From a filamentous cyanobacterium Phorm 6 (GTDB taxonomy: Bacteria > Cyanobacteriota > Cyanobacteriia > Cyanobacteriales > Microcoleaceae), in assembly GCA_003003725.1 (NCBI GenBank), contig PVWI01000019.1:1-38943 (forward strand): DNA of 38,943 bases, in the 5' to 3' direction. The notes under the pieces are model-generated. The model was not told the origin of the DNA. It worked only from the letters and a program-made list of their open reading frames with translations, and did not search any database. The position numbers and the translations under genes are program-made. Of the stretch, positions 3,737 to 6,105 are shown piece after piece (position 1 is the stretch's first letter; every line of letters begins with the position of its first letter).

Positions 3737-3807
<71 letters not shown>

Positions 3808-3810
3808 TTT

Positions 3811-4007
3811 TTAATTTTTATGAGATGTGGCTAAAATGTCGTTTGGGCGATCGAGAAGGTTAACAGGATATATGTAGAGCGCTGAAGTCCACTGCGAAAA
3901 TCTTCTTGACTTCTAGCTCAATATTCGAAATTATGACGAATTTCCGTCATTACAGCCAACGAAACCCAACGAAAAAATCAGGGTTTGAAACTGTAACTTA
4001 ATTTATG
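3811..4007. other. Intergenic sequence without recognised gene
   Basis: Between the tRNA and the transposable element I see no credible ORF. One short palindrome, ATGACG/CGTCAT, lies around 3934-3951. Confidence 0.5.
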
Positions 4008-4198
4008 GACAAAGCTACCCATCCTTTACTATTTGGGTAGCTTTATCCGCGCCATTCGTTGCGATCGCATCACCCCAGACTATTTGCCCCTAGTTCAATT
4101 TGTTTTTGACTCTTAGTGCCATTTGATTGCAGATGCCGGCGTCTTGCGTCAGAGGAATCTGCGTTTGGACTTATTATAAATTTTTTTTACCTGCCATC

Positions 4199-4226
4199 TT
4201 GACGCTCGCAGGAAGTCGTATATAAT
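4199..4226 (+). promoter_or_regulatory. Consensus-like promoter of tnpB
   Basis: TTGACG (4199-4204), a 16-base spacer and a perfect TATAAT (4221-4226), 22 bases before the tnpB ATG. This is the best-matching sigma-70-type promoter I noticed in the window. Confidence 0.6.
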
Positions 4227-4248
4227 ACCAAGCAGAATACATTTACTC

Positions 4249-5484
4249 ATGTCGAGTCAAGTGCAGCTAGTAGAAAAACACGTAATTAACAGACAGCATA
4301 GATTTTGGAATGAGTGCGACCACTTAGCATTACAATCAAAACATCTATACAATTCTGCTAACTACGTCCAGCGCCAATACTTTTTTGAAACCAACAAGTA
4401 TTACAACTCCATCAATATTTATAACCAGACTAAGAACTTAGAAGCTTATCGGTATCTACCAACAAAAGTTAGCAAACAAATTGTTCGTAGAGTTGCTGAG
4501 AGTTGGAAAGGATGGTTAGCTGCACTTAAAGATTGGTCAAAACACCCTGAAAAATATCTGGGCAAACCGAAAATACCAGGATACAAGCATAAAGAGCATG
4601 GCAGAAATGTTGTAATTTATCCGATAGATGCAATATCAAAACCTGCTTTGACTAAAGGGAATGTTAAACTGTCTCAGACTAATATTGAGTTGGCTACTCA
4701 AGCTAAAAATGTAGACCAAGTAAGGATTGTCCCCAAGCTTGACCATTATGTTATTGAAGTTGTTTACACAGTTAATGACATACCCTTATCCCACGGGAAA
4801 TATCTGGCTGGTGTAGACCTTGGTTTAAACAATTTGATGGCTATAACATCCAATCATCCGGGCATCAAGCCGCTGTTGATTAATGGTAGACCTTTGAAAA
4901 GTATTAACCAATTCTTCAATAAACGGGTAGCCGCAGCACAATCAATCGAAGCTAGCAGACAGATTAAGGAACTTAACAGTAAGCGAAATAGAAGAATTGA
5001 CAACTATCTTCATACTGCGAGTCGTCGTGTAATAGATTGGTGTCAATTGAACGAGATTGGTCAGTTAATTATCGGCAAGAACCCAGGATGGAAACAGTCC
5101 ATCAACATTGGTAAAAAAAACAATCAAGCATTTACCAATATTCCCCATACCAAACTGATTAATTTGTTGACATATAAAGCACAATTAGCAGGGATTGCAG
5201 TCACCTTAACTGAGGAAAGTTACACGTCAAAAGCGAGTGCTTTAGATGGTGATAATTTACCGACTTATAGCAAAAATACAGAGATCAAGTCTGTTTTTAG
5301 TGGTAAACGTGTTCAGCGTGGTTTATATAGAGCTTCCACTGGTCAAATAATCAATGCTGATACTAATGGCAGCATAAATATAGCTAGAAAAGTAATTCCC
5401 GACTTCATGAAGGGAATAGAGGGATTGCCGTTTATTCCTGTATTTTTAGGACTGTGGACTAAGATTATAAACGTAGATGTCTAA
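4249..5484 (+). CDS. tnpB: TnpB family RNA-guided nuclease/transposase accessory protein, zinc finger lacking
   Basis: 411-residue protein of the OrfB/TnpB family. The RuvC-like triad is visible: Asp190 in GVDLGLNN, Glu322/323 in TEESYTSKAS, and Asp371 in NADTNGSINIAR. The usual CxxC...CxxC zinc ribbon between the second and third motifs is absent; that segment reads SALDGDNLPTYSKN...FSGKRVQRGLYR. This variant occurs in one IS1341-like TnpB branch, so loss of zinc binding is probably ancestral rather than a defect. TnpB proteins use a guide RNA from the element's 3' end to cut DNA at the donor or target site. Here that RNA would overlap the gene end and the hairpin at 5490-5505. There is no internal stop or frameshift, so the gene may be active. 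The ATG follows a good promoter. Confidence 0.88.
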   Translation: MSSQVQLVEKHVINRQHRFWNECDHLALQSKHLYNSANYVQRQYFFETNKYYNSINIYNQTKNLEAYRYLPTKVSKQIVRRVAESWKGWLAALKDWSKHPEKYLGKPKIPGYKHKEHGRNVVIYPIDAISKPALTKGNVKLSQTNIELATQAKNVDQVRIVPKLDHYVIEVVYTVNDIPLSHGKYLAGVDLGLNNLMAITSNHPGIKPLLINGRPLKSINQFFNKRVAAAQSIEASRQIKELNSKRNRRIDNYLHTASRRVIDWCQLNEIGQLIIGKNPGWKQSINIGKKNNQAFTNIPHTKLINLLTYKAQLAGIAVTLTEESYTSKASALDGDNLPTYSKNTEIKSVFSGKRVQRGLYRASTGQIINADTNGSINIARKVIPDFMKGIEGLPFIPVFLGLWTKIINVDV

Positions 5485-5518
5485 CATTGGCTACCTATGG
5501 GTAGCTTTGTCTAGGTTT

Positions 5519-5728
5519 CTACGAGCGGTTTGATATCGTTTCCCATTGCATCGGAATAATGAGCCGAAATTTGGACTCGCTTATCATTCCGGCGCAGCCG
5601 GAATTGATATAACCCCATTTTTCGGAGAGTAAGAAAAGAGCGGTATCATAACCCTTTTCAGCATCAAAGCTAAGAACCACTGAATAAAAATTCAGATTTT
5701 CATCAGTATTTTTGTTTGAGTTACCCAA
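5519..5728 (-). CDS. Small ORF of unknown function, partly built from a dispersed repeat
   Basis: A 69-codon frame starting with TTG inside the end of the upstream antitoxin-like remnant (TTGGGTAA overlap). The first half (about 35 residues) matches nothing I recognise. The second half, from GYINSGC onward, is simply a translation of the 76-bp hairpin repeat at 5538-5613. It may be a toxin fragment whose 3' end was replaced by the repeat, or it may not be a gene at all. Confidence 0.25.
   Translation of the reverse strand: MGNSNKNTDENLNFYSVVLSFDAEKGYDTALFLLSEKWGYINSGCAGMISESKFRLIIPMQWETISNRS
5538..5613. repeat. Dispersed hairpin repeat, copy 1 (76 bp)
   Basis: Shares most positions with 32756-32893, from GTTTCC through GCCGAAATT to GAATTGATATAAC. 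The core is an 8-bp stem, ATTCCGGC (5586-5593) and GCCGGAAT (5597-5604), with a GCA loop. The other copy has two base-pair changes in the stem, both compensated on the opposite arm. Confidence 0.75.
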
Positions 5729-5940
5729 CAGAAGTCAGCTTATCTACTGTTACATCTTTTTGGGCTTTATTAAAAGCTTCAATAAAACCAGGATTTTTCA
5801 ATAATTCCATCGTAGCTTCATTGCTTTCACGTTCTGCTAAATAAGCTAAAAAATTAGCCGCAACGAGTAGTCTTTCAGGAGATCAGCGATTTATGAATTA
5901 CTTGAGGTTCTGACGGACTTCTTGAGTTTTCATAGTTCAT
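5721..5940 (-). pseudogene. Frameshifted antitoxin-like small gene
   Basis: Two frames on the minus strand make one plausible protein. ATG at 5940 opens MNYENSRSPSEPQVIHKSLIS and ends at a TGA (5877-5875). In the next frame the reading continues as PERLLVAANFLAYLAERESN...VDKLTSVG and stops at 5721. Restoring two bases near 5877, giving TCTCCT instead of TCCT, joins the halves smoothly into a protein of about 73 residues. Its size and acidic helical character resemble cyanobacterial antitoxins, but I do not recognise the family. The simplest reading is decay by a 2-base deletion; a base-calling error is possible. Confidence 0.5.
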
Positions 5941-6105
5941 AGCTATTGAAAATTATGGGAGGTACCTGTTTAATTATACCAGATAGTCTGGAATTCACCA
6001 AAGTCCGATCGCCAATAACGACAAAACCTTCACCAAAAAAAACCAAACACTTGACAACTAAACACCTAAAAAGTTAACTATTTAATAGATCACACCATTG
6101 CACCA

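What the first reader, a model, noticed from the sequence alone, without database searches (positions are those of the whole stretch)
4008..5511. Solo TnpB element with matching end hairpins and a zinc-finger-less, catalytically complete TnpB
The RuvC residues D190, E322/323 and D371 are present, but the CxxC ribbon is replaced by a TSKASALDGD...FSGKRV segment. No tnpA is present. Both ends carry the same 15-base sequence in inverted orientation, each in a hairpin. This combination suggests either trans-mobilisation or a retained nuclease function.
Basis: partly seen in the sequence, partly recalled or inferred. Interest (0 to 1): 0.6.

Follow-up and report, generated by a model that had tools for sequence, protein, structure and literature searches.

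The report
Transposase-less TnpB element, still jumping
A small cyanobacterial jumping element has no transposase of its own but keeps what looks like an RNA-guided DNA cutter with a rearranged active site; its ends match those of a serine-recombinase transposon, which probably moves it.

Summary
The finding is real, but its borders and class change. The element is window 3985-5529 (1545 bp), inserted after GGGT without target duplication. Its only gene is tnpB (4249-5484). It is neither unique nor decaying: 29 genus genomes hold 27 left-end and 31 right-end pattern matches; 23 of 23 left flanks and 27 of 29 right flanks read are distinct. One empty site of this copy and 18 empty alleles of another, 15 exactly GGGT, were read. 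dN/dS is 0.06-0.27.

The ends match IS607 elements that encode a serine transposase, and relatives of this TnpB sit beside IS607 TnpA. No matching Y1 element was seen among 56 of 177 Y1 hits.

TnpB has Gly at the usual RuvC-II Glu position; the invariant Glu is E323, the Fanzor-like 'alternative' place (55 of 55). CxxC is missing in 54 of 55. A covarying RNA covers the tnpB 3' end and right end.

Best reading: an IS607-type element without transposase, moved in trans, with a working guided TnpB. Nuclease activity and the acting transposase are inferred.

The parts
3981..3984 (+). GGGT target, 5' of the left end; inferred transposon-associated motif (TAM)
   Evidence: GGGT in 27 of 27 left-end pattern matches (the pattern contains GGGT, up to 3 mismatches allowed); 15 of 18 empty alleles of another copy read GGGT; empty site of this copy in G024
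3985..5529 (+). whole element, 1545 bp
   Evidence: copies diverge before GGGT and after CGGT; empty site L119
4007..4048 (+). left-end palindrome (hairpin), probable transposase-binding motif; TTGGGTAGCTTT in its 3' arm lies 48 nt inside the left border
   Evidence: same spacing in IS607 elements of G003
4008..4021 (+). 14-base motif, reverse complement of 5498-5511
4199..4226 (+). promoter-like TTGACG-16-TATAAT (11 of 12) ahead of tnpB
   Evidence: 6 sites found, 6.0 expected by shuffles; this is the best-scoring one
4249..5484 (+). tnpB, 411 aa, DLG / relocated-Glu, no zinc ribbon
4816..4818 (+). codon of D190 (RuvC-I)
   Evidence: 55 of 55
5074..5076 (+). codon of G276, the canonical RuvC-II Glu position
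   Evidence: Gly in 55 of 55
5215..5217 (+). codon of E323, alternative RuvC-II Glu
   Evidence: Glu in 55 of 55; follows model strand 317-322
5359..5361 (+). codon of D371 (RuvC-III)
   Evidence: 55 of 55
5395..5529 (+). predicted omega/re-RNA scaffold, overlapping the tnpB 3' end
   Evidence: 24 sequences, 96.7% of cells paired, 11 of 35 pairs with two-sided changes
5472..5523 (+). right-end hairpin (last helices of the RNA)
5498..5511 (+). 14-base motif TGGGTAGCTTTGTC
5526..5529 (+). CGGT, right terminus
   Evidence: 30 of 31 right-end matches end CGGT (G023 ends CGCC)
5530..5549 (+). guide encoded by the right flank (20 nt assumed)
   Evidence: matches the empty site in G024 next to GGGT with 1 mismatch

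Best explanation
This is a transposase-less element with IS607-type ends. An IS607-family serine transposase (TnpA_S) encoded elsewhere recognises motifs inside the two ends and inserts the element conservatively at GGGT, by exchange over the GG shared by target and both termini, without duplication. The element's only gene, tnpB, encodes an RNA-guided nuclease of the relocated-glutamate (Ealt, D-phi-G) type with no zinc ribbon, whose active site is D190, E323 and D371. The 3' end of the tnpB mRNA folds into the guide RNA scaffold (about 5395-5529) and the flanking DNA (5530 on) supplies the guide. After excision TnpB would cut the restored GGGT-guide site, and repair from a filled copy would put the element back. 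Shown by sequence: borders, precise insertion, multiple copies, selection on TnpB, invariant residues, RNA covariation, likeness of the ends to IS607. Inferred: which transposase acts, that TnpB cuts, and the role of the cut.
For: Ends and target: GGGT before 27 of 27 left ends, CGGT at 30 of 31 right ends. Empty site of this copy; 18 empty alleles of the G011 copy, 15 GGGT. Left end against TnpA_S-encoding IS607 elements of the genus, ungapped, register set by eye on shared bases: 37/60 (G016), 35/60 (G023), 32/60 (G003), 31/60 (G001), 0 of 20000 letter shuffles each. Right end 44/70 to G003, 0 of 20000, best of 1937 offsets. In G003 the 48-nt (left) and 32-nt (right) motif spacings equal the window's. 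TnpA_S directly upstream of the same TnpB clade in L024 (78% TnpB identity), L039 and L058, and annotated on a Nostoc plasmid. Ends on GG, insertion at (G)GG, no duplication and internal inverted repeats are described for IS607 (passages of PMC6188088); TAM GGG for an IS607 TnpB, and the Ealt class (passages of PMC10711439). TnpB: invariant D190/E323/D371; dN/dS 0.058-0.265 in 12 pairs; Cas12f/TnpB fold, Z up to 22.2. RNA. Copy number: 13 left and 14 right ends in G005.
Against: No transposase with these ends was found in a carrier genome: the nearest TnpA_S to the G003 type is 58% (G009), 56% (G000, G011) and 46% (G005, G024), and G020 has none. L024, the one relative with both a close TnpB and TnpA_S, shows no long match to the window's ends. 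Two of six TnpA_S left ends (G004 17/60, G007 19/60) are at shuffle level ungapped. The bases before the G016 and G023 left ends read GGGG and GGGC, not GGGT. The gapped left-end pattern is only weakly specific (39 matches, 19 for the reversed control). For 80 letters of the left end, 5 of 20000 shuffles reach the G003 score. GGGT on the left and CGGT at the right end could also be written as IS200/IS605 cleavage sites. The right-end match may partly reflect a common guide-RNA 3' end. Distances in the modelled active site were not measured.
Confidence: 0.7

Rival explanations
1. An IS200/IS605-type (IS1341-like) element whose subterminal hairpins are recognised by a Y1 TnpA acting in trans on single strands.
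For: Both ends form significant hairpins. The genome has two Y1 genes, one in an IS605 with tnpB at C184. GGGT/CGGT can be read as left and right cleavage sites. Y1 hits lie within 3 kb of tnpB in 3 of 80 related loci (L082, L089, L053).
Against: Y1 loci of the genus: 31 compared by BLAST, longest match 14 nt; 56 of 177 hits (overlapping set) scanned by motif, 53 oriented, with only short chance-like pieces (CTGTAAC in 2, GCGGT-type in 21); boundary sequences printed for 29 of the 53 and unlike these. The two hairpins differ in size. End motif and spacing match IS607 instead. In the 24 loci with closest TnpB (76% or more), 0 have a Y1 hit and 1 has TnpA_S (two of the 24, L017 and L054, hold little upstream DNA).
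Confidence: 0.17
2. A decaying relic: a tnpA-deleted copy carried along passively.
For: No tnpA; some copies are broken or internally deleted (G018:C7, G009:C35, the G020 copy), and 28 of 82 related loci failed the unbroken-frame filter (contig ends included).
Against: Intact frame here, dN/dS 0.058-0.265, 27 distinct guides among 29 right flanks and 23 distinct left flanks, one empty site here and 18 empty alleles elsewhere.
Confidence: 0.04
3. TnpB is a nuclease-dead, RNA-guided DNA-binding protein (regulator-like) because the RuvC-II glutamate is lost at the canonical place.
For: G276 in 55 of 55; no zinc ribbon; no biochemistry of a ribbon-less member was seen in my paper searches.
Against: E323 invariant in 55 of 55 at the position used by Fanzor-type enzymes; D190 and D371 invariant; a mobile, multi-copy element rather than a domesticated gene.
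Confidence: 0.09

Closest known systems
IS607 family (serine TnpA plus TnpB), e.g. the G003 element of the same genus
   Same: GGGT target (4 of 4 G003 copies), end motif at the same spacing, right end ...GAGCGGT, tnpB before the right end
   Different: no tnpA in the window element; its TnpB is of another clade (G003 carries a canonical-Glu, CxxC TnpB)
IS1341-type elements (TnpB-only)
   Same: only tnpB between recognisable ends
   Different: here there is direct evidence of movement and a pointer to an IS607 transposase; PMC9956272 (passages) calls it unclear whether IS1341 elements are autonomous or decayed, and favours independent evolution
Ealt D-phi-G TnpB clade and pro-Fanzors/Fanzors (PMC10711439, passages)
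   Same: relocated RuvC-II glutamate; cyanobacteria; IS607 link
   Different: DLG instead of DPG at RuvC-I; no zinc finger
ISDra2 and ISFba1 TnpB, Cas12f (solved structures)
   Same: fold over about residues 3-385: Z 20.5 (8h1j), 20.4 (8iaz), 22.2 (8dzj)
   Different: canonical Glu in ISDra2 (E278) and ISFba1 (E290), zinc finger in ISDra2; for Cas12f both are recalled

Membership tests
RNA-guided TnpB (NF040570) | curated profile score | tested here: met
   156.9 bits against cut-off 100
RNA-guided TnpB (NF040570) | RuvC D-E-D residues | tested here: met
   D190, E323, D371 each 55 of 55; Glu at the alternative position
RNA-guided TnpB (NF040570) | canonical RuvC-II Glu and CxxC zinc ribbon (typical, not universal, features) | tested here: not met
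   G276 in 55 of 55; CxxC in 1 of 55
RNA-guided TnpB (NF040570) | structured RNA at the 3' end | tested here: met
   35 pairs in 24 sequences, 96.7% of cells paired, 11 two-sided pairs, 0 of 500 shuffles; structure derived from the same alignment; no transcript data
RNA-guided TnpB (NF040570) | guided DNA cleavage | not testable with these tools
   needs biochemistry
IS607 | encodes a serine-recombinase TnpA | tested here: not met
   only tnpB lies between the ends; no remnant of the L024 TnpA found
IS607 | insertion at GG without target duplication | tested here: met
IS607 | end motifs shared with TnpA_S-encoding elements | tested here: met
   4 of 6 left ends ungapped above all shuffles, 2 of 6 at shuffle level; right end to G003
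IS200/IS605 | Y1 TnpA in the element | tested here: not met
   none between the ends
IS200/IS605 | a Y1 element elsewhere with matching ends | tested here: inconclusive
   none seen, but only 56 of 177 Y1 hits were examined and ends printed for 29
IS200/IS605 | subterminal hairpins | tested here: met
   but the two hairpins are unlike in size
IS1341-type (TnpB-only) | tnpB alone between ends | tested here: met
Fanzor / pro-Fanzor | DPG at RuvC-I together with Ealt | tested here: not met
   DLG in the window protein; Ealt met

The most novel reading that the evidence does not exclude
A long-lived satellite class: tnpA-less elements that borrow the ends of an IS607 serine transposase and carry exchangeable TnpBs (the relocated-Glu, ribbon-less type here; a canonical zinc-ribbon type in L297 and L184 with like ends). 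They have spread across several cyanobacterial genera, with a related lone TnpB on a plasmid, with TnpB homing supplying the persistence that the missing transposase cannot.
Probability: 0.45. Interest if true: 0.65.

Novelty: new variant of a known kind. Interest (0 to 1): 0.5.

Why it matters
A 2023 survey (PMC9956272, passages) says it is unclear whether TnpB-only elements are autonomous or decayed. This family gives a testable case: precise insertions with empty alleles, defined ends, and a class of transposase that should move them. The TnpB is a compact (411 aa) nuclease candidate with a relocated catalytic Glu, no zinc ribbon and a predicted GGGT TAM, useful for asking what the ribbon does and how the Fanzor-type active site arose.

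Tried and rejected
Rfam: no family at its gathering score in window 3900-5700 (three sub-threshold hits), and only a tRNA in L024, L267, L271 and L039. A Y1 partner in trans: none seen, on a part of the hits only (56 of 177). A matching TnpA_S inside the carrier genomes: not found (not every locus was read); the own-genome TnpA_S at C136 has another upstream sequence and no TnpB-like ORF by motif next to it, and the second own-genome hit (C152) was not read. A tnpA remnant inside the window element: none against the L024 TnpA. Tree of 55 TnpBs: loci with TnpA_S are scattered and not clustered beyond shuffles (3 changes, 500 of 500 shuffles as low), so it gives no dated loss of tnpA. Self-targeting: in five copies of the dispersed repeat next to the element (three of the own genome) the best ungapped guide match has at least 3 mismatches and no GGGT, against 1 mismatch with GGGT at the empty site; the whole genome was not scanned. 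The structure search gives no residue-level superposition. Literature: the listings of searches (at most 20 titles and abstract starts each) showed no paper on a zinc-ribbon-less Ealt TnpB or on trans-mobilised IS607 TnpB-only elements; the library is open-licence only, and a 2023 PNAS classification of TnpB and Cas12 that I recall, and that may cover this clade, was not seen.

Full report
Observation. The window (contig C209 of a 6.6 Mb genome; closest named relatives are Microcoleus) has a TnpB gene at 4249-5484 (411 aa) scoring 156.9 bits to NF040570 (cut-off 100). The 14-base motif at 4008-4021 returns as its exact reverse complement at 5498-5511, and both ends fold as hairpins with z of -4.16 and -4.29.

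Borders. Ends of the fetched copies show different flanks up to GGGT on the left and after ...GAGCGGT on the right; one distant right end (L142) deviates. In the window the element is therefore 3985-5529, 1545 bp. A genus search (29 genomes) found 27 left-end matches in 8 genomes and 31 right-end matches in 13 genomes, with no match of the reversed control patterns. Right ends: 30 of the 31 had a locus, 29 gave a flank by the script's pattern, and 27 of their first 15 bases differ. Left ends: 23 of the 27 were read (four with less similar ends, L177, L183, L184 and L191, were left out beforehand) and gave 23 different flanks (the script's left-end pattern contains GGGT). At least one of the 27 (L184) belongs to an element with another TnpB. 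Genome G005 holds 13 left and 14 right ends, its left ends all within 300 bases of a contig end, as expected of a collapsed multi-copy repeat. The own genome holds a second right end at the end of contig C463 with another flank.

Empty sites. Genome G024 holds the window's site unoccupied: left flank, GGGT, right flank. For the copy in genome G011, 18 genomes with both flanks close to the junction were read (G009 and G021, with a shorter left-flank hit, were not): 15 have exactly GGGT between the flanks, the others GGGC, GGGGG and GGGG. Insertion is thus precise and without duplication.

Protein. From 82 loci (80 and two own-genome paralogues), 54 had an unbroken frame from query residue 70 or earlier to 375 or later and were aligned with the window protein; 28 were left out. 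D190, G276, E323 and D371 are invariant in 55 of 55; E322 in 46 of 55; CxxC occurs only in L087. In L087 the same Glu column stands six residues before the first Cys of CxxC, which is the Ealt place defined in PMC10711439 (passages). In the AlphaFold model (pLDDT 84.1, pTM 0.62, 40 sequences) E323 follows strand 317-322. PMC11423790 (passages) puts the catalytic Glu between the fifth strand and the TNB domain, though it says so for Fanzor, TnpB and Cas12a alike. VIA-align gives Z 22.2 to AsCas12f (8dzj), 20.5 to ISDra2 TnpB (8h1j), 20.4 to ISFba1 TnpB (8iaz) and 18.8 to mimivirus Fanzor2 (9b0l), rmsd 4.5-5.3 over 335-354 residues. Twelve pairwise comparisons with intact relatives give dN/dS of 0.058-0.265.

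RNA. Of 26 right-end sequences collected (L021 had no GAGCGGT, L120 was a duplicate) two short ones were left out, and 24 were aligned. Of the 37 pairs that RNAalifold predicts I counted 35, without the two outermost: 96.7% of cells are paired, 11 pairs have two-sided changes (shuffled mean 5.3, 0 of 500), and sliding the partners drops pairing to 34-46%. The structure comes from the same alignment, which favours it in the sliding control. Three helices (5395-5417, 5420-5439, 5440-5468) lie inside the tnpB coding sequence; the first two have two and three pairs with two-sided changes, the third one. The window RNA folds at z -3.07 (2 of 200 shuffles as stable). This is the layout of a TnpB guide RNA overlapping the gene, followed at 5530 by the flank-encoded guide. 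That guide matches the empty site next to GGGT with one mismatch; five other copies of the dispersed repeat in which it lies have at least 3 mismatches and no GGGT. Silent divergence is low in codons 370-410 (0.316) but about as low in codons 165-205 (0.324), so that measure alone is weak.

Which transposase. Among the 80 related loci, an intact IS607 serine transposase stands directly before tnpB in L024 (TnpB 78% identical), L039 and L058, and fragments in L057, L035 and L064; Y1 hits occur in L082, L089 and L053. A Nostoc plasmid has an annotated IS607 transposase overlapping a 48%-identical TnpB, and another Nostoc plasmid carries an 82%-identical TnpB without an annotated transposase nearby. 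The 24 loci with the closest TnpB (76% or more) hold one TnpA_S (L024) and no Y1; L017 and L054 hold little upstream DNA. IS607 elements of G003 with TnpA_S (four copies, all after GGGT; the exact right-end string in two) end in TGGGTAGCTTTGGGTAAGTTTTATAGAGCGGT; the window ends in TGGGTAGCTTTGTCTAGGTTTCTACGAGCGGT, of equal length. The left ends share TTGGGTARCT 48 nt from the border. Ungapped left-end identities, register set by eye: 37/60 (G016), 35/60 (G023), 32/60 (G003), 31/60 (G001), none reached in 20000 shuffles; G004 (17/60) and G007 (19/60) are at shuffle level; the bases before the left end read GGGG in G016 and GGGC in G023. Over 70 and 80 letters the G003 left end scores 33 (0 of 20000) and 35 (5 of 20000) and ranks 4th of 1926 offsets; the right end scores 44/70 (0 of 20000) and ranks first of 1937. 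A gapped pattern for this left end is weakly specific: 39 matches against 19 for its reversed control. Y1 elements: 31 loci by BLAST, 56 of 177 hits by motif, ends printed for 29 of 53 oriented ones; none shares the ends. Two further elements (L297, L184) have like ends and no TnpA_S hit but a canonical-Glu, CxxC TnpB, so such ends travel with more than one TnpB.

Mechanism. Shown: a defined, precise, repeatedly inserted element with one gene under selection and a covarying RNA. Inferred: an IS607 TnpA_S in trans inserts it by exchange over GG (as described for IS607, PMC6188088, passages), and TnpB with the relocated Glu cuts the restored site so that the element is copied back. The weak point is that no TnpA_S with these ends was found in a carrier genome (best 58% in G009, 56% in G000 and G011, 46% in G005 and G024, none in G020), so the acting enzyme is unnamed. 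Draft assemblies can lose such repeats, but that is an excuse and not evidence.

Novelty. TnpB-only elements, IS607 and Ealt TnpBs are all known. The combination (IS607-type ends, no transposase, ribbon-less Ealt TnpB, clear mobility) did not show in the listings of my paper searches; the library is incomplete.

Noticed in passing
window 5533-5614: The right flank of the element belongs to a short dispersed repeat seen at many places in the genus and in the own genome; the element sits at its edge.
   Followed up: partly
L297 (G021:C36) and L184 (G011:C60): Elements with like ends and no TnpA_S hit that carry a canonical-Glu, CxxC TnpB of 364 aa.
   Followed up: partly
G000:C483:13348-14559 and G000:C21:8169-9350 (L006, L007): Two further intact own-genome TnpBs (53% and 49% identical) with the same relocated Glu and no CxxC.
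   Followed up: partly
G000:C184:34393-36070 (L134): An IS605 of the own genome with tnpB and Y1 tnpA in divergent orientation; tnpB is split over two frames.
   Followed up: no
L135, L217, L222, L227, L230: A 203-aa Y1-like protein occurs in five carrier genomes (G000, G006, G011, G020, G024); it may be a REP-associated transposase (label recalled, not tested). Non-carriers were not compared.
   Followed up: no
window 3737-3807: tRNA-Cys gene 177 bases left of the element.
   Followed up: no
window 5725-5930, minus strand: A small reading frame with stops inside, downstream of the element; DNA over about 5660-5995 has matches of 77-90% in many genus genomes.
   Followed up: no
G018:C7 (L121) and G009:C35 (L141): Internally deleted, shorter derivatives of the element.
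   Followed up: no
L064, L066, L070, L073, L076, L079, L080, L084, L087: Relatives of this TnpB clade in Lokiarchaeota bins, one of them (L087) with a CxxC motif.
   Followed up: no
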